Source of the DNA: Chlorobiota bacterium
GTDB taxonomy: Bacteria; Bacteroidota; Ignavibacteria; Ignavibacteriales; Melioribacteraceae
Reading direction: 5' to 3'
Assembly: GCA_013151245.1 (NCBI GenBank)
Contig: JAADIR010000077.1
Location: forward strand, 1-45,715
Length of the DNA stretch: 45,715 nt
This document shows, piece by piece, positions 8,496-42,409 of this stretch. The first letter of the stretch is position 1. Every line of letters starts with the position of its first letter. The notes beneath the pieces were generated by a model. It was not told the origin of the DNA. It worked only from the letters and a program-made list of their open reading frames with translations, and did no database searches. The translations under genes were made by a program, and so were the position numbers.

Positions 8496-8497
8496 AG

Positions 8498-21350: not shown

Positions 21351-22442
21351 TTATTTTAACGAGACCGCTTTTTCATTCACAAAAAGATGAACTTTTTCTT
21401 TTGGGAAAGTTATTCCGACGGTTTCATATTTCAAATCGTCGTTCAACGGCTGCGCTTTGGCAATCAATTTATCCCCGAACAAATTCAGATAGTAAAGGGA
21501 TTCGGCTCCGAGCGGTTCTATCAATTCTATTTCCGCTTTATATGATTGTTCTGAAGAACCGTTAAGCGCAATGTTTTCGGGACGAATTCCCAACGCGGCG
21601 TTCTCATTTATGTATTTGCTCAATTTCTCCTTTAATCTTTCATCGAATCGGTATAAAAATCCTCCCGAAGCTCGCAAGGCGGGAAGTCCGTTTTCAAAAA
21701 CCATTTTTCCTTTAATAAAGTTCATCGCCGGACTTCCGATAAATCCCGCCACAAATTGATCTTTCGGGAAACGGTATAGCCGAAGCGGCTTATCTATTTG
21801 ACGGATTATTCCGTCTTTCATAACTACAATTCTGTCGCCCATTGTCATCGCTTCGCGTTGGTCGTGCGTAACGTAAATCATAGTAGCGCCGAGTTTGCGA
21901 TGGAGTTTCGAAATTTCGGCTCGCATTTGCACGCGCAGCTTGGCGTCGAGGTTGCTAAGCGGTTCGTCGAACAAAAAAACTTTTGGTTTCCTCACAATAG
22001 CGCGTCCCAGCGCGACCCTTTGACGCTGCCCGCCGGATAAGACTTTCGGCTTTCTGTTCAGTAGTTTTTCCAGTTCCAATATTTCAGCCGTCTCTTCTAC
22101 CATTTTTTTTATTTCATTTTTCGGGAACTTTCTGATTTTCAATCCAAACGCCATATTTTCATAGACGGTCATATGCGGATAAAGCGCATAGTTTTGAAAG
22201 ACCATTGCGATATTTCTGTCTTTTGGCGGAACGTTTTTTACCGGTTTTCCGTCGATAAAAATTTCCCCGTCCGATAATTCCTCCAACCCGGCAATCATTC
22301 TGAGCGTAGTGGTTTTTCCGCAGCCCGAAGGTCCCACCAACACGACAAATTCTTTATCGTCTATATTAAAACTTACGTTATCAACGGCTTTATGTCCGCC
22401 CATATAAATTTTCGATACGTTCTTTAGTTCAACCTTCGCCAT
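21351..22442 (-). CDS. ABC sugar importer ATPase (MalK/UgpC/MsmK type)
   Basis: A 363-residue ATPase of the carbohydrate-uptake type 1 family. Walker A is GPSGCGKT (37-44), the Q loop is at Gln83, the signature is LSGGQ (135-139), Walker B is FLFDE (156-160) and the switch histidine is His193. A C-terminal TOBE-like regulatory region (about 235-360) includes AALGIRPENI. It powers the two permeases encoded upstream. The gap to the upstream permease is 34 bases. MalK-type ATPases are often shared between importers, but here the full set of parts is present. Confidence 0.94.
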   Translation of the reverse strand: MAKVELKNVSKIYMGGHKAVDNVSFNIDDKEFVVLVGPSGCGKTTTLRMIAGLEELSDGEIFIDGKPVKNVPPKDRNIAMVFQNYALYPHMTVYENMAFGLKIRKFPKNEIKKMVEETAEILELEKLLNRKPKVLSGGQRQRVALGRAIVRKPKVFLFDEPLSNLDAKLRVQMRAEISKLHRKLGATMIYVTHDQREAMTMGDRIVVMKDGIIRQIDKPLRLYRFPKDQFVAGFIGSPAMNFIKGKMVFENGLPALRASGGFLYRFDERLKEKLSKYINENAALGIRPENIALNGSSEQSYKAEIELIEPLGAESLYYLNLFGDKLIAKAQPLNDDLKYETVGITFPKEKVHLFVNEKAVSLK

Positions 22443-22476
22443 AAATTTTAATCGTCCGATATGTTTTAAATTTTAA

Positions 22477-23298
22477 TTATTCTTTTACGCTTCCCAGCAT
22501 AATTCCTTTTATATACTGTTTCTGCAAAACCAGAAAAACAATAATTATCGGCAATATCGTTAACGTAGAGCCCGCCATCATTAACTCAGGGTCCTGCGAA
22601 TGTTCGCCCATTAAATTAGCCAACGCAACGGGCAAAGTAAACATCGATTGATCCGAAAGGGCGATAAGAGGCCAAATAAAATCGTTCCACGTTCCCATAA
22701 AAGTAAATAGAGCCAAAGTAACCAGAATAGGTTTTATTACCGGCAGAAATATTTTATAATAAATTTGGAAATCGCTCGCGCCGTCTATTTTAGCGGCTTC
22801 AATCAAACTGTCGGGAATCGATTCTGCATACTGCTTTATCAAAAAAATTCCGAATATATTTGCCATTCCGGGAATAATAATCGCAAGATAAGTATTGATA
22901 AAGCCCATTTCTTTGAGCATAAGGAATAACGGAAGCATCGTTACTTGCGCCGGAATAATCATAGAACTTAGAAGCAGTTTAAATAATTTATCTTTACCGG
23001 CAAATTTATATTTTGCAAAAACAAATCCCGCCATCGAATTAAAGAAAAGAGAAATAAAAGTTACGGAAACAGATAGGATAAAACTATTTAAGAAAAATCT
23101 TCCGATATTGATCCGCGTAAAAAGTTTTTCGTATTGCGTCAATGAAAAAGTATCGGGTAAAAATTTAGGCGGGAAAACAAAAGCTTCTCCGTTAGGCATA
23201 AAAGAAGCGGAAACCATCCAAACGAAAGGGGCGAGCGTAACTATCGCTATCGCAAGCAATAACAAATTCAAACCGAGAGTTTTGATTTTGTTATTCAT
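22477..23298 (-). CDS. ABC sugar importer permease (MalG/AraQ type)
   Basis: A 273-residue inner-membrane permease with about six helices. The ATPase-contacting EAA loop is visible at about 165-185 (IEAAKIDGASDFQIYYKIFLPVIKP). The N-terminal helix followed by APFVWMVSASF and FPP..LPDTFSLTQYEKLF is typical of the second permease of type 1 sugar importers. It overlaps the first permease gene by eight bases, indicating coupling and a heterodimeric channel. Confidence 0.93.
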   Translation of the reverse strand: MNNKIKTLGLNLLLLAIAIVTLAPFVWMVSASFMPNGEAFVFPPKFLPDTFSLTQYEKLFTRINIGRFFLNSFILSVSVTFISLFFNSMAGFVFAKYKFAGKDKLFKLLLSSMIIPAQVTMLPLFLMLKEMGFINTYLAIIIPGMANIFGIFLIKQYAESIPDSLIEAAKIDGASDFQIYYKIFLPVIKPILVTLALFTFMGTWNDFIWPLIALSDQSMFTLPVALANLMGEHSQDPELMMAGSTLTILPIIIVFLVLQKQYIKGIMLGSVKE

Positions 23299-24184
23299 CT
23301 TTCCCTTTTAATTTTAATTGAATAAGCGTTCCCAAAAAGATAACGGCAAAAAGCACAAAAGCAAGCGCCGCCGAATATCCCATATTCCACCAACGAAACC
23401 CTTCGCGATACATATATTGCACAATGCTTAAAGTGGAATTAAGCGGTCCGCCTTGGGTCATTATATAAGGCTCGGCAAACAATTGAAAAAAACCGATAAG
23501 AGTTATTACGCCGATAAATAGAGTCGTGGGCGTTAATAACGGCAAAGTGATTTGATAAAACTTTCGCCAAGCGTTTGCGCCTTCAATTTCGGCGGCTTCG
23601 TAAAGCTGCGAGGGAATATTTTGCAAGCCTGCGGTAAAGATAATCATATTATAGCCGAAGTTTTTCCAAACCGCCATTAAAATAATCGCGGGCATCGCCC
23701 AATCGGGATCGCCAAGCCAATCAATCGGGGAGATTCCGAAAAAGCCGAGCAGATAATTTAAAAGCCCGAAATGGGGATGGTAAACAAATCGGAAAACAAT
23801 GGCAACCGCAACCAGAGTCGTTACGACGGGAAGGAAAAAAGCAAGACGGAAAAAAGATTTAAATTTGGCGAATTTCGAATTAAGCGAAATTGCCGCAAAC
23901 AGAGAGACCGCCACCGAAAGAGGTCCGGCGACGAGCACAAAATAAAAAGTATTTTTCAGAGCTTGCCAAAAAAGCGGATCGTTAAAAAGTTTTACGTAAT
24001 TATCAAATCCTACAAACCGCGTATATCTCCAGTCGGCTAGAGAATAAAGCCCGAAATCCGTAAAACTCATTGCCAACGCGGCAAAAACCGGCAAGAAAAA
24101 AAAGATGAAGATTGCCGACAGCGCCGGAGAAAGGAAAAGCGCAACGGCTTTGGTAATTCCGTATTTATTCGAGGCGTCAATCAT
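23291..24184 (-). CDS. ABC sugar importer permease (MalF/UgpA type)
   Basis: A 297-residue permease with six predicted helices, the first member of the channel pair. The EAA motif lies at about 190-212 (YEAAEIEGANAWRKFYQITLPLLTP), and the early FFFLPVFAALAMSFTDF and FVGFDNYVKLFNDPLFWQALKNT stretches are classic for this family. Its ATG overlaps the stop of the binding-protein gene (ATGA) and its end overlaps the next permease, so the importer is tightly coupled. Likely substrate: an oligosaccharide from the upstream glycosidases. Confidence 0.93.
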   Translation of the reverse strand: MIDASNKYGITKAVALFLSPALSAIFIFFFLPVFAALAMSFTDFGLYSLADWRYTRFVGFDNYVKLFNDPLFWQALKNTFYFVLVAGPLSVAVSLFAAISLNSKFAKFKSFFRLAFFLPVVTTLVAVAIVFRFVYHPHFGLLNYLLGFFGISPIDWLGDPDWAMPAIILMAVWKNFGYNMIIFTAGLQNIPSQLYEAAEIEGANAWRKFYQITLPLLTPTTLFIGVITLIGFFQLFAEPYIMTQGGPLNSTLSIVQYMYREGFRWWNMGYSAALAFVLFAVIFLGTLIQLKLKGKDE

Positions 24185-25440
24185 TTTTCGTCCAAAATCT
24201 GCCTGCGTTTGGCTAAGATATCATCCACCGCTTTATCCAATGCTTTCATCGCGTCGTCCGCCGTCATTCGTTCCATCACGACATATTCAACGTATTGCCT
24301 CAATTCCGAATAAACTATTCTCTCCCACTCGGGAATTTTAGGCGTCGCAATTACGTTCTTGAATTGTTCGTAAAACGCTTGCGTATATTTATCGTTAATC
24401 AAAGCGGGGTCGTTCCAAACTTCTTTAACCGCGGGCAAGTCGTTCAGCAACTTGAAGAATTTTAATTGACTCTTTTTTCTTGAGAGAAACTCGATCAATT
24501 TCCACGCGGCTTTTTTGTTTTCGGAATTTTTATTGATAACCAGACTCGAACCGCCCGCCAATGAAACCCCGGGATAGTTTCCCTTTCGCGAAGGAAGAGG
24601 CGCGACATTCCAAACGCCGCTTAAAGAATCCCCCATACGTTTTTTGAATTCGGCGACGTCCCACGGTCCCGAAATATACATCGAAATATATTTGTCTTTA
24701 AATGCTTGATAAACGTTCGCAACTTGCGAAACGCCAACGGGCGATAGTTTTTCTTTATGATATTCCGTTAAATACAAAAGCGCTTCCTTAAACTTTTGCG
24801 AAGAAAAATTTCCGTAACAATTATTTTCTTTCAATAATTCGGCGCCGTTTTGCAGGGCAAATATCACGTAAGGAGTCCAATCCGTAGTAGGAAGATAGAT
24901 CGGATATTTCTTTTCGTCGTTTAATATGCTTTTTATTTTTTTTGCCGCCGCAAACAATTCATCCCATGTTTTCGGAGGAGAATTGTAGCCTGCTTTACTT
25001 AAAACATCCGACCGGTAAAACAAAACGCGGGTATCGACATACCACGGGACGCCGAAGACGGACGAATCGATTACGTTTGTATTCCATATACCTTCAAAAT
25101 AGTTTTCCTTATTCACAACCCGTGAAGAATCGATATACGCGTCCAACTTTTGAACCGCATTCAAAAATGCAAACTGCGGAATCCACGTGTTCCCAATTTG
25201 AAATAAATCCGGCAGCATATCGCTTGCAAAAGCCGTAACCAATTTCTCTTGCGCGGCGCTCCACGGCACTTGCTGAACCGTTACGCTAACGTTGGGATTT
25301 TCCTTTTCAAAATCCGCGATTAAATCGTTAACGCGCTCGCCTTCTGCGCCCATTGCCCAGAAAGAAATTTCAGTTTTTTTATTTTCGTTTGAAGAACAAC
25401 CGAAAATTATTAGCGATATTAGGAATAAGTATTTATTCAT
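24181..25440 (-). CDS. Sugar-binding lipoprotein of the ABC importer
   Basis: A 419-residue family 1 solute-binding protein. The short N-terminus MNKYLFLISLIIFGC15SSN is a lipoprotein signal, so the mature protein is tethered in the periplasm. The ISFWAMGAEGERVNDLIADFEKENPNVSVTVQQVPW strand-helix start is typical of carbohydrate binders. Its start codon lies 3 bases after the hairpin of repeat R1 copy C, and the first three codons are identical to sequence at the same point of copy B. No Shine-Dalgarno sequence is visible. The ligand is probably a di- or oligosaccharide. Confidence 0.92.
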   Translation of the reverse strand: MNKYLFLISLIIFGCSSNENKKTEISFWAMGAEGERVNDLIADFEKENPNVSVTVQQVPWSAAQEKLVTAFASDMLPDLFQIGNTWIPQFAFLNAVQKLDAYIDSSRVVNKENYFEGIWNTNVIDSSVFGVPWYVDTRVLFYRSDVLSKAGYNSPPKTWDELFAAAKKIKSILNDEKKYPIYLPTTDWTPYVIFALQNGAELLKENNCYGNFSSQKFKEALLYLTEYHKEKLSPVGVSQVANVYQAFKDKYISMYISGPWDVAEFKKRMGDSLSGVWNVAPLPSRKGNYPGVSLAGGSSLVINKNSENKKAAWKLIEFLSRKKSQLKFFKLLNDLPAVKEVWNDPALINDKYTQAFYEQFKNVIATPKIPEWERIVYSELRQYVEYVVMERMTADDAMKALDKAVDDILAKRRQILDEK

Positions 25441-25748: not shown

Positions 25749-28130
25749 TCATTTGACATACAACATTTTTTTAGTTTGCAAATAATTCTCCGCCGTCAAT
25801 TTGTAGAAATATACTCCGCTCGAACGACCGGAAGCATTCCAAACCGCTTTGTGCTTTCCCGCGGGAATTTCCCCATCGACCAAAGCCGCAACTTTTCTAC
25901 CGAGCGCATCGTAAATCAAAAGCCGCGCATACATTTTTCTCGGGAGGGAATATTCAATTATGGTATCGGGGTTAAACGGGTTCGGGTAATTGTCGTATAA
26001 CTTAAAATTCAATTCGGGCGTATCTTCGGGAACGCCGGTTACGTCTTCAAAGCCAATGGCGGCGAGCGCCGGAGCGATTTCGGGGTTCGACATAAACAAG
26101 TTCCAAATAAGCCGCGTGCGATAATTTTCGATCATAATAATAATCGGACCTTGGTCAATTGCAAGATAATCGCCCGCCGTCCAATTTAAGCCCGGATTGA
26201 AAGCGTCTCGAAATCCGAAACTTCCCCAGAGCGTTTCGCCGTAATTATTGTAGAAGCTCTTGAACGCCTTCATAGCTTCCTCGGGAACGAAAGGAAAAGA
26301 AGAGAGCGCCGCGGTTGGAGTTATCGTTCCGTTGTCGTTGTAAACCGGAGCGTGCGCCGTATAACCGACCAGCGGATCGTCGCTAGCCGTTAAGCCCCAA
26401 TTGCTTTCGTCGTATCCGGCGAAACCTTGCGGGTTTTCAATAGCGTATTTCTGATGAACGAGAGCGACGTTCTTTGCGTGCGTAAAATAATTTGCGTAAG
26501 CGTCTTTTTTATCCCGCGGATCGAAACCGAGAAATGAATAGTGAACGAAGAAAAGCGGTCCGCCGTAATCGGGACCGACGTCTAGCTTAATGCCGTAAAA
26601 CGTTTTTCCGTTTTCATAACCGCCTCCCGCCCAGCCGCTGTGATACAGATCGGCTGGAACGGAATGCGTAGGGGAAGCCACGGCAAGCAAATAAACAATC
26701 ATCGCCTCGTTGAAGCCGCGTATTTGATGGTTCATTTGCCAGCCGTAGTTAGGAGACCAGTGCCAGTAAAGGACTTGCCCGTTTTCGCTTTTTCTGTACC
26801 AGTCCCATTCCACTTCTTCCCAAAGTTGCGTTGCAAGCTCGCGAATTTCGTTCTCGGAAACATTGTCTTTGTTAAAGTATTCCCTTGCCGTAAGCAAACC
26901 GGAAACGAGATACGCCGTTTCCACAAGGTCCCCGCCGTCGTCGAACTGACTAAAGGGAATTGCCTTTCCCGTTTCGCCGTCGAGCCAATGAGACCACGCG
27001 CCGTGAAATCTGTCGGCGTTTTTCAAAAAATTAATAATTTTCAAAGTTCGAGCCGCGCCGGTTTCGCGCGATACGAAACCTCTTTCAATTCCTACAATTA
27101 TCGCCATCAGCCCCATTCCCGTTCCGCCCGACGTTACAATATTTCCCGAGCCGGTTCTTTCTCTGCTCATTCCCGAAACCGGATGAGCGTAATCCCAAAA
27201 ATATCTGAAAGTAGCTTCCTGCAGCATATCTAGCTCTTCGTCGTCGTTTAATTCTCTTGTCGTTGCCGAAACCGTCGCGCTCAAAGCGGATTCGTTGCCC
27301 GATTGATCGAATGCGGAAACGGCATATTCCGCGGTGATTCCGAATTGCCCGAGAAAATGGGAATAATAAATTTCATCTTTATCGGCGGTTCCGACCAATT
27401 CCTCCGAACCGTCGTTTATTTTGTAAATATAATAACCGGCAAGGTCTTCTTCGTCGTTTCCATTCCATTTTACGTCGATATGTTTGGAATAACCTTTAGC
27501 GTAAAGAATTTCGGGAACGTCCGGCGGATCGACGTCGTTCTCGTTTGCGTCGGTCATTCTTATTTCGTCGAGATAGAGCGTATGATTGACGTTGTCCGCC
27601 GCGCCTTGTCCGTAGAAGATTGTTTTTATTTTCGTCAAATCCGCCTCGCCCGGATATGCGATAAATATCTCAAGCGGAATCGATATTTTAATCCATTCGT
27701 TCGCCGGAATGTTTTGAGAATAATCGGATAGATTCTGTTTGTCCGTTTTTTTGTTGTTTATATCTTCGAGATAAATTATCGGCAAATCAGCCGATTCCGT
27801 TTCCGATTCGGAAAAGACCCAAAAGGAAAGAGAGTCTTTTGTCGTAACGTCGTGCCCGGGCCAGCCGGGTTCCGCCACGGCGATTCCCCAGTCGCCGCCT
27901 TCCGCCGAAAGCCAACTGAGTTTCAGCGAATTTGTTCCTTGATATTTTATATTTTCCGCGACGGGAAATTTATCGCCGACGCGCTCCAAAACGCTCGGCT
28001 GATTAGCGAACCCCCAACTCGGGTCGTATGAAACTGCCGTCTGACTGTCGCTGAAAAACACAAAATCCTGAGCGGCGACGCCCGAGGCGGATACGAATAT
28101 ATATATTAGAAGAAACAGAGTTTTTTTCAT
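25749..28130 (-). CDS. Secreted GH144-like endoglucanase (glycoamylase fold) with T9SS sorting domain
   Basis: A 793-residue exported enzyme. Order: signal peptide (1-20, ASGVAA); a carbohydrate-binding-like beta-sandwich (about 21-195); a fibronectin III-like domain (about 205-292); a catalytic domain (about 296-700) of the 'glycoamylase' Pfam family with RYFWDYAHP, YFNK, GYDESNWGLTASD and NPGLNWTAGDYLAIDQGP; and a C-terminal sorting domain from YPNPFNP (about 712) to KKMLYVK. The family includes GH144 endo-beta-1,2-glucanases. It would act at the cell surface. It starts 1 base after the GH2 stop. The exact bond cleaved is inferred from family only. Confidence 0.83.
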   Translation of the reverse strand: MKKTLFLLIYIFVSASGVAAQDFVFFSDSQTAVSYDPSWGFANQPSVLERVGDKFPVAENIKYQGTNSLKLSWLSAEGGDWGIAVAEPGWPGHDVTTKDSLSFWVFSESETESADLPIIYLEDINNKKTDKQNLSDYSQNIPANEWIKISIPLEIFIAYPGEADLTKIKTIFYGQGAADNVNHTLYLDEIRMTDANENDVDPPDVPEILYAKGYSKHIDVKWNGNDEEDLAGYYIYKINDGSEELVGTADKDEIYYSHFLGQFGITAEYAVSAFDQSGNESALSATVSATTRELNDDEELDMLQEATFRYFWDYAHPVSGMSRERTGSGNIVTSGGTGMGLMAIIVGIERGFVSRETGAARTLKIINFLKNADRFHGAWSHWLDGETGKAIPFSQFDDGGDLVETAYLVSGLLTAREYFNKDNVSENEIRELATQLWEEVEWDWYRKSENGQVLYWHWSPNYGWQMNHQIRGFNEAMIVYLLAVASPTHSVPADLYHSGWAGGGYENGKTFYGIKLDVGPDYGGPLFFVHYSFLGFDPRDKKDAYANYFTHAKNVALVHQKYAIENPQGFAGYDESNWGLTASDDPLVGYTAHAPVYNDNGTITPTAALSSFPFVPEEAMKAFKSFYNNYGETLWGSFGFRDAFNPGLNWTAGDYLAIDQGPIIIMIENYRTRLIWNLFMSNPEIAPALAAIGFEDVTGVPEDTPELNFKLYDNYPNPFNPDTIIEYSLPRKMYARLLIYDALGRKVAALVDGEIPAGKHKAVWNASGRSSGVYFYKLTAENYLQTKKMLYVK

Positions 28131-28131
28131 A

Positions 28132-30198
28132 TTACATCCATTTTATTTTATGTTCGATTATTTCCAATTCTTTTTCGTTTTCCGATAATACTTTTCCCAC
28201 GCTATCGATTAGTTTTAATTTCAGTTCGGTTTTCCCGCCGAAACCGTCGAGCTTAATTTTGAATTTGTCAAAGGGTAAAAAGACCGTCGAATCTTCCTGT
28301 ATATTTATCTCCTTTATCGCGGCGACCTTTTTCTCGTTTAAGCAAATCTCCAATTCGGCGGATATTATTTTACGGGGTAAATCGTTTATTATTCGCGTCT
28401 CAAAAAATAATTCCTCGCCGATTTGATATTTTTCCTTTTTCAAATCGATGGAAAGAAAGAGAGGCTCGAACGCTTTTTTAAGCGCGTAAAATCCGGCTTT
28501 CTTTTTGCCGAAATAATCGACGACAGACCAGGTAACGGCTTCCCAGCAATCGACGAACATAAATTGGAAGATTCCCGTTATTCCGTTCCACTTTTTTCTT
28601 CTGTAATAATCTACCGCTTTGGAGATTAACTCCGCTTGATATTTTTGAGAATTGTTTACGAATTCCTCTATATTCTTGCCGATTTCGACTTCCGCAACAT
28701 TGAAAGTTTGTTCGTATTGAAAATTATGATATTCCCACTCTTCCCAATTCAATCCTGATATATCTTTTTCGGAAAGAATTTTTCGCAATGATTCCACATT
28801 CGGCAGAGCCTGCGCGCCGAACTCAGTAACCAGCGGGCCCATAGGCGCGGCTGAGAAATGTTCCGCCTTTCCCCAATACCAGCCGTCGTAAGGATGTTCT
28901 TCGTAATTCGACGCTTTTCTGATTATTCTCGTTCCGTCCTCTTCGCGGACGGCGTCAAACAAATAATTATCAAGCGTATTAATTTGACCGCCCGGTTCGT
29001 TGTGGCAGCACCAAAAAACAACGGAGGGATGATTGAACAATCCGCGAACCATATCTTTTATCTGCCGGACTGCGTTTTCCTTGAATTCATTCGATTCGTC
29101 GTAAGTCCACTGCAAGGCGAAATCCTGCCAGACAAGAATTCCCGCTTCGTCGAACGCGTCGTACAATTCCTTTCTGTTTACGTGCGCGTGCACTCGAACA
29201 ATATTAACGTTTGCCTCAAGCAAGTTTTCCGTCAGTTTTTTTATTCTTTTCTTTGAAAGCGACGAGAGAAACTGTTCGGGAATAATATTCGTTCCGCGGA
29301 GAAAGAATCTTTTTCCGTTTATTATAAATTCGTTCTTTTCCGAAAGACTTACTTCGCGAATGCCGAATTTATTTTTTACGGTATAAAATATTTTTGAGGA
29401 TATTTTAAGTTCATACAGCGACGGCTTGCCTAATTCGTACGGAAACCATAATTCCGGTTCTTCGATTTTTATCACGACAATCGCGGTTCCCCCGCCGGGC
29501 TCGAAAACAATATTTCTTTTTGCCGCGATAATTTTACCGGACGGGGATTTTACTGCGATATTTACGCGATTTTTCTTCGCGAGAGAGTAAAAGGAAACGT
29601 ATTCAAAGTATATTTTTATTTCCGCAAAGTCGTCGAAAATTTTCGATTCCACTTTCACGTTTTCTATCGAAATGTCTTTTGTCTTGATAACTTTTACCGA
29701 ATTCCATATCCCGCCGGTGTTTTTATCTTGTCCGCGTTTCAAATCCCAACCGCCCGGTCTGCAATCGTGATGATTGAAAATTCCCTTTATTAATTTTTTT
29801 CTGTCGGGCCAAACATTTCCCGCTTCTTCAACAGGCGAAGCGACCTTTACAATTAAGCGGTTTCCTTTACGTTTAAATATATCATTTGTTAAATCGAACG
29901 AAAATCTACTGAAATAGCCTTCGTGCGAACCGATAAATTTACCGTTCAGCCATACGTCGGTAAAATAATCGACGCCATCGAAGACGAGTTTTCTTTTCCG
30001 ATTATTTTCGGGTAAATCAAATTCTTTTACATACCAAAGCGCGCCGGAATAATTTTCGAATTCCGATTCGTTCCAATTTGAAGGAACGTTGATTTCGCCG
30101 TCGTATTTTTCAGCGGCAATTTTTTTCTCCGCCGCGCCGAACGACAATCCCGGGTTCGGGTCGATCAGATATTTCCATTTGCCGTTTAAGTTAATCAT
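28132..30198 (-). CDS. GH2-family glycosidase, cytoplasmic
   Basis: A 688-residue enzyme with no signal peptide. The N-terminal jelly-roll (about 1-175; YSGALWYVKEFDLPE, LVFDGVDYFTDVWLNGKFIGSHEGYFSRFSFD) and immunoglobulin-like domain (about 180-290) lead to a TIM barrel (about 290-590). The acid/base is Glu401 in CCHNEP and the nucleophile is Glu459 in VTEFGAQ. Overall it resembles beta-mannosidase or exo-glucosaminidase branches more than LacZ. It overlaps the GH94 gene by eight bases. It should hydrolyse imported oligosaccharides; the sugar specificity is not clear. Confidence 0.87.
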   Translation of the reverse strand: MINLNGKWKYLIDPNPGLSFGAAEKKIAAEKYDGEINVPSNWNESEFENYSGALWYVKEFDLPENNRKRKLVFDGVDYFTDVWLNGKFIGSHEGYFSRFSFDLTNDIFKRKGNRLIVKVASPVEEAGNVWPDRKKLIKGIFNHHDCRPGGWDLKRGQDKNTGGIWNSVKVIKTKDISIENVKVESKIFDDFAEIKIYFEYVSFYSLAKKNRVNIAVKSPSGKIIAAKRNIVFEPGGGTAIVVIKIEEPELWFPYELGKPSLYELKISSKIFYTVKNKFGIREVSLSEKNEFIINGKRFFLRGTNIIPEQFLSSLSKKRIKKLTENLLEANVNIVRVHAHVNRKELYDAFDEAGILVWQDFALQWTYDESNEFKENAVRQIKDMVRGLFNHPSVVFWCCHNEPGGQINTLDNYLFDAVREEDGTRIIRKASNYEEHPYDGWYWGKAEHFSAAPMGPLVTEFGAQALPNVESLRKILSEKDISGLNWEEWEYHNFQYEQTFNVAEVEIGKNIEEFVNNSQKYQAELISKAVDYYRRKKWNGITGIFQFMFVDCWEAVTWSVVDYFGKKKAGFYALKKAFEPLFLSIDLKKEKYQIGEELFFETRIINDLPRKIISAELEICLNEKKVAAIKEINIQEDSTVFLPFDKFKIKLDGFGGKTELKLKLIDSVGKVLSENEKELEIIEHKIKWM

Positions 30199-32581
30199 TT
30201 TTTTTCTTCAACGTGGCGGTTACTTTCACCGGTTTGTCCGAAGCGATATTCAACGTATCTTCGTTATACTTTTCTCCGTCGATTTCAATTTCAACTTTGC
30301 CGGACGAAAGCCCGAAAGGATTGATTACGGTAATAAGGTATTCGGTTCCTCGATAATATCTTTTTACGCTGTAAAACATCCAACTTTCCGGTATGTGCGG
30401 ATCGATTATCAAACCGTCTTTTCCGGCGCGAACGCCGAGTATCCAATCCACTATAACCTTTTGATACCAAGCGGCTGAGCCGGTGTACCATGTCCATCCC
30501 CCCATTCCGTAGTTAGGCGAATCGGGTCCGTCGATATTGCCAGGCATAACGAACGGTTCGGCGACGTAAACATCGGGTTCTTCGCCGGAATAAATCGGGT
30601 TCATTCTTTTGTAAACTTCAAACGCTTTTTTATTTTCGTTTAGTTTTGCAAACGCCCATATCGCCCATGTTGACGCGTGAGAATAAACGCCGCCGTTTTC
30701 GCGTCTTCCGGCGGCATAGCGGGTCAGATATCCGATAAAACTGTCGGGCTTTCCGTACGCCTGGCGTAAAAGCAAACATCCGTTTTTCTTCAAAAGTTTT
30801 TCCGCCGCCGAATTCATTGCAATTCGTTCTCTTTCCTCGCCCGCAATTTCGCTTATTGCCGCCCACGTTTGCGGATTGAGATAAATTTGACCTTCGCCGT
30901 TTTCCGCGGCGCCTATTTTTTCGCCGGAATCTTTAGTCGCTCTCAAAAACCATTCGCCGTCCCAGGCGTTGTCGCAAAAGGCTTTTCGCAGTCCGGCGGC
31001 TTTGTCTTCGTATTTTTCCGAGCGTTCTGCATTTCCAATCGATGAATATATGTTTGAAAAGTCTCTCAATATTTTGTATAAAAATTCCGCAAGCCAAAAA
31101 GATTCTCCCTTCATTTCGAGTCCAACGGCGCTCATTCCGTCGTTCCAATCGCCGGCGCCTATTAACGGCAGTCCGCGTTCGCTCAGTCTGTTCAGAGCTT
31201 TATTAATCGCTGCGTCGCAATGTTCGAGTATTGTCGCTTCCTTTCTCTGCTCGTCGAAATAAGGCTCTACGTTGTTCAGAATTTCATAATCGCCGGTTTC
31301 CATAATATATTGATGAACGACGAAAGGAAGCCAAAGCATATCGTCGGTCATTTCGGTCGCAAGTCCGGTTTCGGAAATCGGATGCCACCAGTGCAGAACT
31401 TCGCCGCCTGAGAATTGATGCCGCGAATGAAGTTTAATTTGTTTTTTCGTTAATTCAGGATGGGAAGACAACCAAACAAGACTGTCCTGAAGCTGGTCTC
31501 GAAATCCGAACGCGCCGCTCTGCTGATAATACGCCGTTCGTCCCCACAGTCTGCCGGAAATCGCTTGATAACGCGTCCAAGTGTTTACCATATAATTCAT
31601 CGCCGTATCCGGCGTATTGATTTCAAAATTCCCGAGTATCTCATTCCATTTTCTTTTTACGGCATAAAATGCTTCATCCACTGCGTCGAAGGAAGAATAT
31701 TTCGAGAGCGATTCCGATATTTCATTTTTGTCCTTTTTCAGTCCTAGGAAAAAATTTATTCTTTCTTCGCCGAGCGTTTCAAGTTCCGAGTTTACTTTAA
31801 GGGAAGCGATTGAATCGTTGAAAGCGCCCGTGGTCTCGGATAGTTTTCCGTTTGCAACCGCAGCCGGTTTTTCAAGGCTTCCGTATTGTCCGATAAATTT
31901 TTCTTTATCGCCGTCGTATGAAACCGGATTTTTCCCGCACGAAAAGAAGCCGACGTAATCGTATTCAACGTTCCAATGTCCGCGGTCGCCGAGGGGAATA
32001 TCCCACAATCTTTTTTTCGCCGTTATTGCATTTAAACTCTCGTCGTAGTCGGTTTCCAAAAATTGTTTGTGAAACTCTCTGTGAAAATCCACCGAAGAAC
32101 CGAGCGCCCATTCAAAGTAAGTAAAGATCGACAAATCCGCTTTTCTGTCGGAACGGTTTTTTATTTTTACGTCCCATATTTCAAGGGTTTCGTCAAACGG
32201 AACAAATATCAAAAGTTCTATTTCTATTCCTTTATATTCGGAAACAAATTTTGCGTAGCCGGTTCCGTATCTGCATTCGTAGTTATCGAGTTCCGTTTTT
32301 ACCGGAGACCAAGTCGGGCTCCAAACATCGCCGGTTTCATTATTTTTTATATAAATATATTTTCCCCAATTATCCCGTATTAAATCTTGATGCCAGCGCG
32401 TGATTCTGTTAAACTCCGAATGGTCGAGCCAACTGAACCCGCCGCCGGTTTGCGAAATAACAAGTCCGTATCGCCCGTTGGAGATAACGTTTACCCAGGG
32501 TTTGGGAGTTCGCGGAGTTTTAATTACATATTCTTTTCCGTCTTTGTCGAAATATCCGTATTTTGTTTCAAAGTTTTTCAT
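30191..32581 (-). CDS. GH94-family glycoside phosphorylase
   Basis: A 796-residue cytoplasmic enzyme without a signal peptide. The start (YGYFDKDGKEYVIKTPRTPKPWVN) and WSPTWSPV...YECRYGTGY are like cellobiose and chitobiose phosphorylases. The catalytic motif GAGDWNDGM has its general acid at Asp478, closer to the GDWNDG form of beta-1,2-glucan enzymes. ENGGVYSHASTWAIWAF fits the phosphate site. The family splits beta-glucosides with phosphate to give glucose 1-phosphate. Acceptor specificity (cellobiose, sophorose type or other) cannot be decided by eye. It starts 26 bases after the PorV-like gene. Confidence 0.88.
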   Translation of the reverse strand: MKNFETKYGYFDKDGKEYVIKTPRTPKPWVNVISNGRYGLVISQTGGGFSWLDHSEFNRITRWHQDLIRDNWGKYIYIKNNETGDVWSPTWSPVKTELDNYECRYGTGYAKFVSEYKGIEIELLIFVPFDETLEIWDVKIKNRSDRKADLSIFTYFEWALGSSVDFHREFHKQFLETDYDESLNAITAKKRLWDIPLGDRGHWNVEYDYVGFFSCGKNPVSYDGDKEKFIGQYGSLEKPAAVANGKLSETTGAFNDSIASLKVNSELETLGEERINFFLGLKKDKNEISESLSKYSSFDAVDEAFYAVKRKWNEILGNFEINTPDTAMNYMVNTWTRYQAISGRLWGRTAYYQQSGAFGFRDQLQDSLVWLSSHPELTKKQIKLHSRHQFSGGEVLHWWHPISETGLATEMTDDMLWLPFVVHQYIMETGDYEILNNVEPYFDEQRKEATILEHCDAAINKALNRLSERGLPLIGAGDWNDGMSAVGLEMKGESFWLAEFLYKILRDFSNIYSSIGNAERSEKYEDKAAGLRKAFCDNAWDGEWFLRATKDSGEKIGAAENGEGQIYLNPQTWAAISEIAGEERERIAMNSAAEKLLKKNGCLLLRQAYGKPDSFIGYLTRYAAGRRENGGVYSHASTWAIWAFAKLNENKKAFEVYKRMNPIYSGEEPDVYVAEPFVMPGNIDGPDSPNYGMGGWTWYTGSAAWYQKVIVDWILGVRAGKDGLIIDPHIPESWMFYSVKRYYRGTEYLITVINPFGLSSGKVEIEIDGEKYNEDTLNIASDKPVKVTATLKKKND

Positions 32582-32607: not shown

Positions 32608-33618
32608 TTAAAAACCTATTTCAAGCGATATTCTGTGAACGTCTTTCAAACGCGAGTAGTCCGAATAAGAATAATCCACTCTCATAGGAATGAAATCGGT
32701 AATATAATAAAGCAAGCCGACGCCGCATGCGAACCCTTCTTCAGCTTCGATTTTGAAAAGAGATTTGTATCCCGCGCGCAAAAAAAGAACTTCTTTGAAA
32801 GAATATTCTGCGCCGAGACTGACCGATTCGCTGTAATCGTTCGGATGAACGGCGTCGCAGCTAACCGACAGCGCGTTGTATTCGGTTTTAAGTAATTGAT
32901 ACGCCAACCCAACCTTAAACGCAAGAGGCAAATCCCAATAATCGGTTTTTATTTCGGCGAATATTTTATCGTCGTTGCCGTGCAGCGAAGGATCGAAGGA
33001 ATAATAAACAAAATTGTCCCCTCCTTCATATTTCAATTTCGGACCGACGTTAGTAATCGACATTCCAAGCGAAAGCCCTTTTATCGGAGTGTGGTACAAA
33101 AGTCCCACGTCGAACGCGAATGAAGAAGCGTTCATATGCCAAATATTTTCCGAAATATATTTTCCGGTAAAACCCAGACTAAATTCGTTTGTTATCATAA
33201 AAGAATACGTGATTCCCAGGGCAAGGTCGTTGGCGGAAAAATATTCGCCAGTTCCGTCTTGGTAGAATTCGTTTGTCACTTCCATATCCGGCATACCGAG
33301 CGATACGTAGCTCAGCGCCAGCGCTTGAGAAGAAGAAAGTTTAATAATCACGCTCGCGAAATCGTGATAGGTTCCCGCAATCCAATAAGTATGGCTGAAA
33401 ACGGCGGAGTTGTTTTTCATTGAGGCAATTCCGGCCGGGTTCCAGAAAACGGCGGAGGCGTCGTCGGCAACGGCGGTAAATGCGCTTCCCATTCCCACCG
33501 CTCGCGCGCCCGCGTCAATTTTAAGGAACTGTCCGCCGCTGCTCCCGGCATAGGTTTGAGCTTTGGCGTTTGAATTGAGAATAAGTCCTATTAAAATTAT
33601 TGCAACAAAAACTTTCAT
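32608..33618 (-). CDS. PorV/PorQ-like outer-membrane beta-barrel protein
   Basis: A 336-residue protein with a signal peptide (MKVFVAIILIGLILNSNAKAQ) and the hallmark SGGQFLKIDAGARAVGMGSAFTAVADDASAVFWNPAGIA of PorV/UPF0164 proteins, which have FadL-like barrels. The remainder is strand-rich and ends with DVHRISLEIGF. In type IX secretion PorV shuttles substrates to the attachment complex. I chose the ATG at 33618 with GGAA before it; the longer frame uses a TTG (33645) inside the upstream gene. It lies 10 bases after the large surface protein gene and may be dedicated to it. Confidence 0.85.
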   Translation of the reverse strand: MKVFVAIILIGLILNSNAKAQTYAGSSGGQFLKIDAGARAVGMGSAFTAVADDASAVFWNPAGIASMKNNSAVFSHTYWIAGTYHDFASVIIKLSSSQALALSYVSLGMPDMEVTNEFYQDGTGEYFSANDLALGITYSFMITNEFSLGFTGKYISENIWHMNASSFAFDVGLLYHTPIKGLSLGMSITNVGPKLKYEGGDNFVYYSFDPSLHGNDDKIFAEIKTDYWDLPLAFKVGLAYQLLKTEYNALSVSCDAVHPNDYSESVSLGAEYSFKEVLFLRAGYKSLFKIEAEEGFACGVGLLYYITDFIPMRVDYSYSDYSRLKDVHRISLEIGF

Positions 33619-33628
33619 CTGCGTTCCG

Positions 33629-36600
33629 TTATTTAATAATTGCAAATCTTCCTATTTTCTCTCCCACGCCCGGCGCTTCGAGGTGGTAAACGTAAACTCC
33701 GGGCGCAACGTCTAACCCGGAATTCGATTTTAAATTCCACGAGGCTTTCCCGTCGAGCAGATTCGATTCGTGGTTTATCGTGGCTACCCAATCGCCGCTA
33801 ATCGTGTAAATTCGTATTGTCGCTTTGTTAGGCAAGCGAGTAAAATATATTCGCCGTTCCGTTCTTCCCGAAGCGGTCAATCGCTGCGGTTCCCAGCGCG
33901 CCGCGCCAACGTAAGGATTAGGCACGACGGTAACTTTATCCAATTCTTCTTTGGCTTTTCCCAAATCGATTTTTTGTTTTACGGCGTAAAAAGTATATTT
34001 ATCTTTTTTACTAAACGGAGTTTTGATCGTCAATTTTGCCAGGTCCCCGGAAGAAGGATTGATCGTTCCGGCGTTAGTAGGAGCAATTAAACTGAAGCGC
34101 CATATTCTTTTCTGCACGCCGTTAATTTCCTTCCATACGTCGAAATAATCGCCGGCGTTTAACTTCCGGTCGGCGGCGTCGGCGGGTTCCCAATGATAGT
34201 ATTTCACTTTTTTCTTATTGTAAACGTCCCACACTTGAAAATCGGTTTCGTTTCTGTACCCGTATAGCCAGGACGAATCCGGCTGTCCGACGCGAACCTC
34301 ATAACTTACCGGATAATCTTCGATTCCGGCGGGAACGTCGTAAGTTTTTTCGCCGAGAATAATTACGTTTGAGTTTCCGTTGGTCCAACCGGAATTATCG
34401 TAATCGAATTCCACGCTGTCGTCGAAAACGAGAACTCTTATTCCGTCGATCAATTCGTTGAAATCCTCGCCGTCGGTATAAGGGGAATTTTGAATTAACG
34501 GAATCGTATCGGCGGAGGCTATTTCATAAACCGAATAAAGCGTAGTATCGGCGGAAGAACCTGCGAAAGATATCAGGTATTCTTTGTCGCCAACCAAATC
34601 CGGATTAACGACTTCCGTGAGTATTGTTCCGGTTCCGTTTCCGGCGGCGTGATAAACGGTATCGAGCCCGGCGGGAGAGACGTAGCCCGCGGAAGCCGTT
34701 CCCGGCGTTACTTGCGCCGTGTTAACGTCGAGCGTAACGTTTCCGGCTAAATCCCTTACTATCACTTTCGTACACTCTGAAGGATACAAACCTATTCCCG
34801 CGTTCCCTCGATCGTAAGAAACAACGGCGTAGTAATAAGTCTGCCCGTTCATAACTTCAGAGTCCGTCCAAGAATGTTTCAAACCCTTGTTATCGCCGAG
34901 ATAATATTTTACGCCTTGATAATCCAAATCGAAGAATCCGCCGACGTCGTTTATTATATCGAATTGCGCGACCGGTTTATAGAGCGTATTGTCGCCGTAT
35001 CCGCTTGTTATTGTGTATGCGTCTTGAAATCCCGGATCCGTGCTGCGGTAAATCTTGTATCCTTCGAAGTCGTATTCTTTCAAAAAAGAATCGTAAGACT
35101 GTTCGGCGTCGGAATCCCAATAAAGAGTAACCTTTCCGTCGGTCGCCGCCGCGCTTACTTTCGGTTTCAATGGAGGTTGAGCGAAGCGGTAATTGTTGTC
35201 GTAAATATTCTGCACGGTTTCTTTGTTTCTTACTATATCGTTCAAATCGTTCCCGAATAGAAGCCCGAGCGAAAATCTTTCGGTCGCTCCGGAAGGCAAA
35301 ATGAAAGGTCCCGAGCCGAAAAGAAAAGCGATGTTTCCGTTTTGAAGGTCGGTATCGAAATGACTGTAAGAAATCCGCTCCCAAATTCTGTCGTCTTCTC
35401 TGAAGGTAACCCCGGAACCGATATAGAAAACGTCGAAGGCGGTAAGCCCGATTTGATCTGATTCGTTAATATCGGTTTTATCAATATTCGGTTCTCCCGG
35501 TTGTCCCGTGTCGGCAAGTCCGTATTTGTTTACGGGTCCGTCGGGCATTCCGGAAAAAGAACCCGGAAGCAGCCATCCCGAAGTCGGCTTTCCGTCTCCC
35601 TCGCCGTAATCGCCCGTTCCGGCCAAGCCGTCCAGCCCAACGTCGTCAATCGAAGCGTCCCAATTGCCGTTGTTGTCAATTCCGTCCGAACGCGCTTCGT
35701 CAATCATCTCGTCGATTACGCCGTTGTTGTCGTTATCAATCCCGTCGGCGTATTTCATGCCGATATTAAAAGTCGATTCGTCAATAATTCCGTTTCCGTT
35801 ATCGTCTATTCCGTTGCCGGCTATTTCGCCTTCGAGCATATATTGTTCGATAACCGGATTCATATTTTCGCCGTCGCCGTCGTCGTCGATAAAATTATTC
35901 GGATTACCCGGGCTCTCTAAGAAAGCGTATCCGGCATAACCGGTTGGGCTCCAGCCGCCTTCTCCAATTCCGTCGTGATCCCAGCTGTACGTAATATCGT
36001 CGTCTTTATTAAACGAAGCATAATCGTCGTTCGAATCGAATTGCCCGCCCACGCCGCAATCTACGTACATCCCGAAAATTGCCTGATTGTAGTTGTGCGT
36101 TCCTTCGTTCGTAATTTCGTAATGCCAGAAAATAAGGTCTTCGGCGAGAATGTTCGACCACTGAAAACCGCGCACCTTAACGCTCAAGCCCAATCCCCGC
36201 CGCGTATGGTCGGTGGAATCGGGATAAAAATTATGCCCGTCGTCGCTGTTATCGTCCATAACAAAATAACTCTCTTGATCGGCGTTGGTGATTTTGCCGA
36301 AATAGCCGTCCCAAAAGCCGTTCCACGAATCGTCTTTTCCGGGCCAGCTTAGCGGCCAAGTTATCGGCTTATCGCTCATAGCGATAGAAGACTGATTGGG
36401 ATTGGCGTATCCGGGACGAGGCTGAAAACCGCGCTCCACTCCCGAAGGAGAAACGTCCATATTTTCTCTGTAACCGGCTTCGACCATTCTAATTGTATCT
36501 CCGGAAGCGTCAACTACTTGCGCGGCTACAATCGGAGTGATGCCGTCCATATACGAATGGCGCGAACCGCGCGGCCAAACGCCGGAAGGCTCGCGTCCCC

Positions 36601-36775
36601 ACCAGGCTACTTCTCCGAAATTATAGAAAAGCGTTTCCACCAAATTTCCGTTGTGAATCCCTTCTTTACGATATTTTCTGTCGCCTCGTTTTTCCGGCGG
36701 AACGCTGATTTGCGCAAAAGTTGCGCTCGTAAATAAAATCAGCAGCGGCAATATTAATATTTTCGAATTTTTCAT
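33629..36775 (-). CDS. Large exported Asp-rich surface protein with C-terminal sorting-like domain
   Basis: A 1,048-residue protein with a signal peptide (1-21). Residues about 310-400 hold Asp/Asn/Gly-rich calcium-type loops (DDDGDGEN, GIDDNGNGIIDE, GIDNDNNGVIDE, GIDNNGN). A fibronectin III-like part follows at about 555-700 (PPLKPKVSAAATDGKVTLYWD). The end has VTVVPNPYVGAARW...RIYFTRLPNKATIRIYTISGDWVATI...VYVYHLEAPG, similar to T9SS C-terminal domains. The N-terminal family is unknown to me. It is encoded 9 bases after the TonB receptor and 10 bases before the PorV-like gene, where SusD would be expected in a classical locus. Glycan binding is a guess. Confidence 0.75.
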   Translation of the reverse strand: MKNSKILILPLLILFTSATFAQISVPPEKRGDRKYRKEGIHNGNLVETLFYNFGEVAWWGREPSGVWPRGSRHSYMDGITPIVAAQVVDASGDTIRMVEAGYRENMDVSPSGVERGFQPRPGYANPNQSSIAMSDKPITWPLSWPGKDDSWNGFWDGYFGKITNADQESYFVMDDNSDDGHNFYPDSTDHTRRGLGLSVKVRGFQWSNILAEDLIFWHYEITNEGTHNYNQAIFGMYVDCGVGGQFDSNDDYASFNKDDDITYSWDHDGIGEGGWSPTGYAGYAFLESPGNPNNFIDDDGDGENMNPVIEQYMLEGEIAGNGIDDNGNGIIDESTFNIGMKYADGIDNDNNGVIDEMIDEARSDGIDNNGNWDASIDDVGLDGLAGTGDYGEGDGKPTSGWLLPGSFSGMPDGPVNKYGLADTGQPGEPNIDKTDINESDQIGLTAFDVFYIGSGVTFREDDRIWERISYSHFDTDLQNGNIAFLFGSGPFILPSGATERFSLGLLFGNDLNDIVRNKETVQNIYDNNYRFAQPPLKPKVSAAATDGKVTLYWDSDAEQSYDSFLKEYDFEGYKIYRSTDPGFQDAYTITSGYGDNTLYKPVAQFDIINDVGGFFDLDYQGVKYYLGDNKGLKHSWTDSEVMNGQTYYYAVVSYDRGNAGIGLYPSECTKVIVRDLAGNVTLDVNTAQVTPGTASAGYVSPAGLDTVYHAAGNGTGTILTEVVNPDLVGDKEYLISFAGSSADTTLYSVYEIASADTIPLIQNSPYTDGEDFNELIDGIRVLVFDDSVEFDYDNSGWTNGNSNVIILGEKTYDVPAGIEDYPVSYEVRVGQPDSSWLYGYRNETDFQVWDVYNKKKVKYYHWEPADAADRKLNAGDYFDVWKEINGVQKRIWRFSLIAPTNAGTINPSSGDLAKLTIKTPFSKKDKYTFYAVKQKIDLGKAKEELDKVTVVPNPYVGAARWEPQRLTASGRTERRIYFTRLPNKATIRIYTISGDWVATINHESNLLDGKASWNLKSNSGLDVAPGVYVYHLEAPGVGEKIGRFAIIK

Positions 36776-42360: not shown

Positions 42361-42376
42361 ATGTAACCGCTTACAT
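42361..42376. promoter_or_regulatory. LacI-type operator
   Basis: ATGTAACCGCTTACAT is a palindrome with one central mismatch pair and the central CG typical of LacI-family operators. It begins just after the -10 box of the regulator's own promoter and covers the expected start of transcription. No second good copy was seen before the other genes of the locus. Confidence 0.8.
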
Positions 42377-42380
42377 TTCA

Positions 42381-42409
42381 AATATAAGACTATAATGCTT
42401 ATTTGTCAA
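42381..42409 (-). promoter_or_regulatory. Promoter of the LacI gene and probably the glycan locus
   Basis: On the minus strand TTGACA (42404-42409) and TATATT (42381-42386) are 17 bases apart, a full sigma-70-like match. The -10 region reads TATATTTG, which also fits the TAnnTTTG element of Bacteroidota promoters. The operator follows immediately. Confidence 0.82.

What the first reader, a model, noticed from the sequence alone, without database searches (positions are those of the whole stretch)
25749..32581. GH144-like, GH2 and GH94 trio: a probable beta-glucan (perhaps beta-1,2-glucan) pathway
A surface-exported glycoamylase-fold/GH144-like enzyme is coupled with cytoplasmic GH2 and GH94 enzymes and an ABC importer under LacI control. 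GH144 endo-beta-1,2-glucanases and GH94 beta-1,2-oligoglucan phosphorylases are known, and a Listeria operon pairs a GH94 sophoro-oligosaccharide phosphorylase with an ABC importer and a LacI regulator. The GAGDWNDGM motif is closer to that GH94 branch, although length and N-terminus are cellobiose-phosphorylase-like. A GH2 enzyme in place of GH3 is unusual.
Basis: partly seen in the sequence, partly recalled or inferred. Interest (0 to 1): 0.6.

Follow-up and report, generated by a model that had tools for sequence, protein, structure and literature searches.

The report
Beta-1,2-glucan eating gene island
A bacterium of the Ignavibacteria group carries a conserved, LacI-controlled gene island that very probably cuts the unusual sugar polymer beta-1,2-glucan outside the cell, imports the pieces and splits them with phosphate, using a GH2 enzyme where known relatives use a GH35 enzyme.

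Summary
The three genes are real and intact: GH94 (30191-32581), GH2 (28132-30198) and a secreted GH144 (25749-28130). They sit in a larger minus-strand island: LacI, T9SS-tailed protein, TonB receptor, 1048-aa protein, PorV-like protein, GH94, GH2, GH144, ABC importer. The beta-1,2-glucan reading is well supported. The GH144 keeps the CpSGL catalytic residues and matches BDI_3064 over its full length. [quoted passage not shown] The binding protein's second-best solved relative is the sophoro-oligosaccharide binder Lin1841. Of 57 genomes of the order with this GH94, 56 also have GH144. The new element is GH2: it is in 37 of those 57 genomes, the ortholog of the I. album GH35 beta-1,2-glucosyltransferase is in 15 others, never both, and each lies next to GH144. 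The window's genome has no GH3. GH2 is therefore probably the sophorose-splitting enzyme, a predicted non-homologous replacement. An I. album cluster of this kind was already published, so this is a new variant of a known kind. No activity was measured.

The parts
25749..28130 (-). GH144 beta-1,2-glucanase-type enzyme: signal peptide, CBM30-like domain, FN3-like domain, (alpha/alpha)6 catalytic domain, T9SS sorting tail; secreted/surface
   Evidence: PF10091 7.4e-75, PF18962, PF21582; BDI_3064 5z06 3.2e-176 over residues 21-689, CpSGL 5gzh 4.9e-139; CpSGL D135/D139/E142/E211/D400 all conserved = D397/D401/E404/E475/D642
28132..30198 (-). GH2 enzyme, cytoplasmic (no signal peptide seen); predicted sophorose/sophoro-oligosaccharide beta-glucosidase or transglucosylase
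   Evidence: GH2 Pfam domains; invariant N400-E401 and E459; H337 where beta-mannosidases have Trp (criterion PMC12243196); next to GH144 in nearly all genomes
30191..32581 (-). [quoted passage not shown] predicted sophoro-oligosaccharide phosphorylase
   Evidence: PF17167/PF06165; CGS 8rf9 6.3e-147 above cellobiose phosphorylase 4.3e-129; tree 100/100 with CGS domain; motif table
32608..33645 (-). PorV/PorQ-family outer-membrane protein
   Evidence: NF033709 1.5e-68; true start may be downstream of the TTG
33629..36775 (-). 1048-aa conserved exported protein of unknown family, part of the receptor trio
   Evidence: no Pfam match at E 0.1; 44-81% identical in homologous islands
36785..39445 (-). 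TonB-dependent receptor with CarboxypepD_reg N-terminus; predicted glucan-oligosaccharide uptake across the outer membrane
   Evidence: PF00593, PF13715, PF07715; conserved in the island
39536..41293 (-). exported protein with T9SS tail; first part looks like a CBM9-type repeat (label by eye, no Pfam domain hit)
   Evidence: PF18962 only
41319..42341 (-). LacI-family repressor, first gene of the island
   Evidence: PF00356, PF13377; conserved at the head of the island
42362..42375 (.). LacI-type operator TGTAAGCGGTTACA (within AATGTAAGCGGTTACATT), 5 bases downstream of the -10 box
   Evidence: 53 exact, all intergenic copies in 42 of 80 homologous loci, none found in Markov-1 sequences
42381..42409 (-). 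sigma-70-like promoter TTGACA-17-TATATT before lacI
   Evidence: read from sequence
24181..25440 (-). ABC solute-binding lipoprotein (lipobox LIIFGC)
   Evidence: PDB: 3uor 2e-117, Lin1841 5ysb 2.9e-64
23291..24184 (-). ABC permease 1
   Evidence: sequence; conserved about 65-77% in the island
22477..23298 (-). ABC permease 2
   Evidence: sequence; conserved about 64-77% in the island
21351..22442 (-). MalK-type ABC ATPase
   Evidence: PF00005, PF17912, PF08402

Best explanation
This is a beta-1,2-glucan utilisation island. The secreted GH144 cuts linear beta-1,2-glucan outside the cell into sophoro-oligosaccharides. The TonB receptor, with the 1048-aa and PorV-like proteins, brings them into the periplasm. 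The Lin1841-like ABC importer moves them into the cytoplasm. [quoted passage not shown] The GH2 disposes of sophorose (and perhaps short oligomers), by hydrolysis or glucosyl transfer, doing the job that the GH35 enzyme does in related bacteria. The LacI protein represses its own promoter, and probably the whole run of genes, until the sugar arrives. Shown here: gene content, homology, residue conservation, co-occurrence, GH2/GH35 exclusion, conserved operator. Inferred: substrate, direction of flow, the exact cut made by each enzyme, the single transcript. Step by step: GH144 acting on beta-1,2-glucan about 0.88; GH94 phosphorolysing sophoro-oligosaccharides about 0.8; GH2 acting on sophorose about 0.65.
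For: GH144 match to BDI_3064/CpSGL and conserved catalytic residues. GH94 nearest to CGS GP domain, tree split from CBP and paralogs 100/100, SOGP/CGS-type motifs: YYQQSG-AFGFRDQLQD without the CBP R362 insertion, REN...Y.H instead of KEN...F.H, Y699 at LpSOGP Y1004 (residue roles from PMC5309861). SBP to Lin1841 2.9e-64. Co-occurrence in 164 genomes: 56/57 GH94 genomes have GH144; GH2 in 37 and GH35 in 15 of 57 with zero overlap. The GH35 is the IaSGT ortholog (7vkw, E=0) and in L101, L098 and L104 lies in the GH2 slot. No GH3 in the genome. Operator conserved. Same reading for the I. album cluster in PMC8861115.
Against: No activity data were found for any protein of these GH94 and GH2 clades. 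Co-occurrence p-values ignore shared ancestry. In Bacteroides xylanisolvens a GH35 beside a GH144 homologue did not act on beta-1,2-glucooligosaccharides but is a beta-1,2-galactosidase (PMC11739564), so neighbourhood alone can mislead. GH2's nearest folds are beta-mannosidases. The SBP's best PDB hit is a Xanthomonas 'sugar binding protein' (3uor), not Lin1841. Foldseek ranks cellobiose phosphorylase above CGS for the GH94 model, which has low confidence in the active-site loops. Five GH94 genomes have neither GH2 nor GH35.
Confidence: 0.87

Rival explanations
1. The island degrades a different beta-1,2-linked glycan (for example one containing galactose, mannose or a decoration), with GH144 opening the backbone and GH2 removing a non-glucose sugar.
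For: A GH35 in a GH144 cluster proved to be a beta-1,2-galactosidase (PMC11739564); marine GH144 loci carry sulfatases (PMC6499787); GH2 nearest solved relatives are beta-mannosidases; beta-galactosidases dominate GH2 (PMC12243196).
Against: GH2 carries His337, not the beta-mannosidase Trp, at the loop-2 C2/C3 position; it alternates with an ortholog of the GH35 enzyme shown to act on beta-1,2-glucosides; GH94 is CGS-type, whose natural substrate is beta-1,2-glucan.
Confidence: 0.1
2. A beta-1,4-glucan (cellobiose) pathway: GH94 is an ordinary cellobiose phosphorylase, as its length and N-terminus suggest.
For: GH94 is 796 aa with a single N-domain; C. thermocellum CBP is its second-best PDB family (4.3e-129) and the top Foldseek hit.
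Against: The tree separates it from CBP with 100/100 support; genuine CBP-like paralogs exist in relatives and are different (L068, L069); the CBP R362 loop is absent; GH144 is present in 56/57 genomes; no cellulase was seen in the island.
Confidence: 0.03
3. Still beta-1,2-glucan use, but the GH94 is a true disaccharide enzyme, a sophorose phosphorylase, and GH2 is an accessory for other ends.
For: If GH144 releases sophorose as the known exo-GH144 does (PMC12369401, PMC8861115), sophorose would be the main import; GH94 is CBP-sized; four genomes at 94-100% completeness have the GH94 but neither GH2 nor GH35 (G003, G036, G038, G153).
Against: Subsite +2 looks open as in oligosaccharide-acting LpSOGP, which does not use sophorose (PMC5309861); the exo mode of this GH144 is uncertain.
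Confidence: 0.2
4. GH94 serves synthesis or length control of a beta-1,2-glucan, as in cyclic glucan synthase, rather than breakdown.
For: Closest solved relative is the CGS phosphorylase domain.
Against: No second GH94 and no CGS found in this genome by GH94 search; stand-alone gene next to importer, receptor and secreted glucanase; LacI-type control.
Confidence: 0.02

Closest known systems
Ignavibacterium album beta-1,2-glucan cluster IALB_1177-1187 (PMC8861115)
   Same: GH144 genes, a GH94 described as a homologue of the CGS C-terminal SOGP domain, TonB receptor, ABC transporter with Lin1841-like binding protein
   Different: I. album has the GH35 beta-1,2-glucosyltransferase IaSGT and two GH144; the window has GH2 in place of GH35 and one GH144.
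Listeria innocua Lin1839-1841 operon (LiSOGP, GH3, Sopn-binding protein)
   Different: Lin1839 is a long SOGP with an extra N-domain and the cluster uses GH3; LpSOGP, its homologue, matches the window GH94 only at 2.8e-10
BDI_3064 (GH144, Parabacteroides distasonis)
   Same: N-terminal domains plus GH144 catalytic domain over the full length
   Different: the domain-1 Arg that I recall as the exo determinant is replaced (Trp-Pro) in the window protein; the window protein has a T9SS tail
[quoted passage not shown] tumefaciens, 8rf9)
   Same: closest GH94 relative by score, motifs and tree
   Different: window protein stands alone, without GT84, cyclase or the extra GP1 domain

Membership tests
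GH144 | PF10091-type (alpha/alpha)6 catalytic domain | tested here: met
   7.4e-75; solved GH144 relatives down to 1e-127
GH144 | CpSGL D135, D139, E142 (base candidate) and E211 (acid) | tested here: met
   D397, D401, E404, E475; roles from PMC12102758
GH144 | hydrolysis of beta-1,2-glucan | not testable with these tools
   needs assay
BDI_3064-type exo-sophorohydrolase (GH144) | extra N-terminal domains | tested here: met
   alignment from residue 21
BDI_3064-type exo-sophorohydrolase (GH144) | domain-1 Arg blocking subsite -3 (R93, recalled from the literature; numbering offset assumed) | tested here: inconclusive
   Pro with a neighbouring invariant Trp at the aligned place; identity of the Arg rests on memory
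GH94 | supersandwich + catalytic domains, catalytic Asp in DWND | tested here: met
   (D481)
CGS/SOGP-type beta-1,2-oligoglucan phosphorylase | phylogenetic grouping with CGS GP domain | tested here: met
   100/100 branch; LpSOGP itself not in the tree
CGS/SOGP-type beta-1,2-oligoglucan phosphorylase | open subsite +2 (no Arg as in CgCBP R362), Y1004-, R916- and Y922-equivalents | tested here: met
   residue roles from PMC5309861; LpSOGP residues placed by motif spacing; R907, Y141 and Q621 could not be placed
LiSOGP/LpSOGP proper | additional ~250-residue N-terminal domain (Ndom1) | tested here: not met
   796 aa, one N-domain
Cellobiose phosphorylase | GIGRGMGFRD loop with R362 filling subsite +2; grouping with CBP | tested here: not met
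GH2 | NE acid/base motif, Glu nucleophile, strand-2 Arg | tested here: met
   N400-E401, E459, R335 invariant
GH2 beta-mannosidase (GH2_13) | Trp in loop 2 near C2/C3 (PMC12243196) | tested here: not met
   H337, invariant in 12 orthologs; placed from pairwise alignment
I. album-type beta-1,2-glucan cluster | GH144 + CGS-like GH94 + TonB receptor + ABC importer with Lin1841-like SBP | tested here: met
I. album-type beta-1,2-glucan cluster | GH35 IaSGT | tested here: not met
   no match in the window's genome; GH2 in its slot
Listeria SOGP operon | GH3 sophorose beta-glucosidase | tested here: not met
   no GH3 in the 93%-complete genome

The most novel reading that the evidence does not exclude
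The GH2 clade is a new, sophoro-oligosaccharide-specific beta-glucosidase or transglucosylase that has exchanged places repeatedly with the GH35 enzyme in a multi-phylum beta-1,2-glucan island, working beside a new stand-alone, probably dimeric, CGS-type phosphorylase that may also take sophorose (a search of the held papers found no mention of a 'sophorose phosphorylase').
Probability: 0.5. Interest if true: 0.62.

Novelty: new variant of a known kind. Interest (0 to 1): 0.5.

Why it matters
Beta-1,2-glucans are bacterial symbiosis, virulence and osmotic-stress polymers, and few consumers are characterised. The island occurs in Ignavibacteria, Marinimicrobia, KSB1 and Calditrichota genomes, pointing to a widespread, little-studied route by which these glucans are eaten. 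It names two untested enzyme groups with directly checkable activities: a GH2 acting on sophorose, where the beta-1,2-glucan-associated beta-glucosidases I found in the literature are GH3 and GH1, and a stand-alone CGS-type phosphorylase. The GH2/GH35 exchange is a clean case for studying non-homologous replacement in a carbohydrate pathway.

Tried and rejected
Cellobiose, chitobiose and laminaribiose phosphorylase readings of the GH94: rejected by tree and motifs, with ChBP, CBAP and LpSOGP ranked only by score because their sequences could not be fetched. GH2 as a beta-mannosidase: fold says yes, the loop-2 residue says no. Treating the ~35%-identical GH94 paralogs of relatives as the same enzyme: rejected, they lie on the CBP side of the tree. 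Locating the I. album cluster itself: no genome with 100% IaSGT was found (best 82%). A regulon beyond the island: two other perfect operator matches in the genome, one among acyl-CoA carboxylase/MeaB-like genes and one near an AraC-type regulator, gave no sugar link. AlphaFold models had low confidence in active-site loops, so no pocket argument was drawn from them.

Full report
What is there. Pfam gives GH94 supersandwich and catalytic domains, four GH2 domains, and a CBM30-like plus PF10091 plus T9SS-tail architecture. They lie in a run of minus-strand genes: LacI (41319-42341), a T9SS-tailed protein (39536-41293), TonB receptor (36785-39445), a 1048-aa protein with no Pfam match (33629-36775), a PorV-family protein (32608-33645), GH94, GH2, GH144, then SBP, two permeases and a MalK-type ATPase (21351-25440). 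Relatives place the genome in the Melioribacteraceae neighbourhood of the Ignavibacteriales.

GH144. The best solved relatives are all GH144 or close homologues: BDI_3064 over residues 21-689 (3.2e-176), 4gl3, CpSGL (about 5e-139), XcSGL (1.1e-57). The CpSGL residues whose mutation strongly lowers activity (PMC12102758) are all present and nearly invariant in orthologs. Whether it works exo, like BDI_3064, is open: the N-terminal domains are there, but the Arg that I recall as blocking subsite -3 is replaced by Trp-Pro; that recollection and the numbering were not checked against the paper. About half of the orthologs lack the first domain.

GH94. [quoted passage not shown] A maximum-likelihood tree of 43 sequences splits cleanly: this clade plus the synthase domain (A. 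tumefaciens and a relative's own 2903-aa protein) against CBP and all the ~35% paralogs, 100/100 on both sides. The clade and the synthase share a short loop (YYQ-SG-AFGFRDQLQD) where CBP has GIGRGMGFRD; that Arg (CgCBP R362) fills subsite +2 in CBP, and LpSOGP has small residues there (PMC5309861). They also share REN...Y.H and WTWYTGSA, giving R, Y and Y at the places of LpSOGP R916, Y922 and Y1004, where CBP has K, F and L; for the synthase these two stretches were read from the relative's protein, because the printed A. tumefaciens sequence was cut off before them. LpSOGP was not in the alignment; its residues were placed by motif spacing. Unlike SOGP, the protein has one N-domain, so by analogy with CBP its pocket is probably completed by a second subunit.

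Neighbourhood and distribution. In 58 relatives the GH94 clade (57-71% identity, with a gap down to 38%) is in 23 genomes and all 23 have GH144. In 164 genomes of the order: GH94 57, GH144 71, both 56; GH2 39, of which 37 are with GH94; GH35 16, of which 15 are with GH94; no genome has both GH2 and GH35 (arithmetic). The two GH2 and one GH35 genomes lacking the GH94 are 82-89% complete. Hypergeometric values (1e-28 for GH94/GH144, 7e-10 for the zero overlap) ignore shared ancestry and are only a guide; but two genera (g2 and g31) each contain a GH2 genome and a GH35 genome. GH2 has a GH144 on the same contig in 38 of 40 cases, within about 1 kb in 37. The GH35 is the IaSGT ortholog (7vkw, E=0), next to GH144 in all 15 cases with both on one contig, and in L101, L098 and L104 it stands in the GH2 slot. 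Five genomes with GH94 have neither. A scan of named genomes extends the island LacI - T9SS - TonB receptor - 1048-aa - PorV - GH94 - GH144 - SBP - permeases, without this GH2, to Marinimicrobia, KSB1 and Calditrichota. More distant GH94 relatives (47-50%) in Omnitrophota, Bacillota, Spirochaetes and Chloroflexi mostly have other neighbours.

GH2. Solved relatives and Foldseek both point to beta-mannosidases at about 20% identity. A recent division of GH2 (PMC12243196) says beta-mannosidases replace a loop-2 His near C2/C3 with Trp. At the aligned place this clade has invariant H337, with the NE motif (N400-E401), nucleophile E459 and R335 also invariant. So it is GH2, related in fold to the mannosidases but without their C2 signature. 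The genome has no GH3 at all and no IaSGT, so GH2 is the obvious candidate to deal with sophorose; GH1 was not searched.

Transport and control. The SBP's second solved relative is Lin1841, the sophoro-oligosaccharide binder (2.9e-64); the first is a Xanthomonas sugar-binding protein (2e-117). Upstream of lacI there is TTGACA-17-TATATT followed 5 bases later by TGTAAGCGGTTACA inside AATGTAAGCGGTTACATT. The core TGTAANCGNTTACA has 53 exact, all intergenic, copies in 42 of 80 homologous loci, mostly before lacI, the T9SS gene, GH144 or GH94; Markov-1 sequences gave none. The window has only this one copy, so a single repressed transcript is a plausible inference, but the 308-base gap before the SBP could hold another promoter.

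What is known. PMC8861115 described the I. [quoted passage not shown] PMC12369401 lists the beta-1,2-glucan-associated beta-glucosidases as GH3 and now GH1. In the papers I read, no GH2 is tied to beta-1,2-glucan; the GH2 survey counts only three GH2 beta-glucosidases and does not mention sophorose. A warning comes from PMC11739564: a GH35 next to a GH144 turned out to be a beta-1,2-galactosidase. Many papers are not in the library, so absence is weak evidence.

Verdict. The pathway is of a published kind; the GH2-for-GH35 exchange, the GH94 clade and the cross-phylum conservation of the island and operator are the added points.

Noticed in passing
window 33629-36775 and homologous loci L071-L143: A 1048-aa exported protein without any Pfam match forms a conserved trio with a TonB receptor and a PorV-like protein, with no SusD. 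Paralogous trios (33-45%) sit beside other T9SS genes, and the window's genome has several related copies: perhaps the SusCD equivalent of this group.
   Followed up: partly
window 42362-42375: LacI-type operator ATGTAANCGNTTACAT conserved as exact intergenic copies in 42 of 80 homologous loci.
   Followed up: yes
[quoted passage not shown]
   Followed up: no
L101, L079, L116 and many order genomes: Many relatives have a second, shorter GH144 (about 450-500 aa, 31-41% identical) in or near the island; the window's genome has only one PF10091 gene.
   Followed up: no
L119 and L125, downstream of GH94: In Marinimicrobia-type islands a 460-480-aa protein with PF10091 and DUF3131 matches takes the place next to GH94.
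   Followed up: no
window 24181-25440: The SBP's best solved relative is Xanthomonas 3uor ('ABC transporter sugar binding protein', 2e-117), well above Lin1841; that protein may deserve a binding test with sophoro-oligosaccharides.
   Followed up: no
window 6705-10521: A second sugar-type cluster: Na+/solute symporter, APH-type kinase and nucleotidyltransferase genes in a row, resembling a sugar kinase/NDP-sugar salvage set.
   Followed up: no
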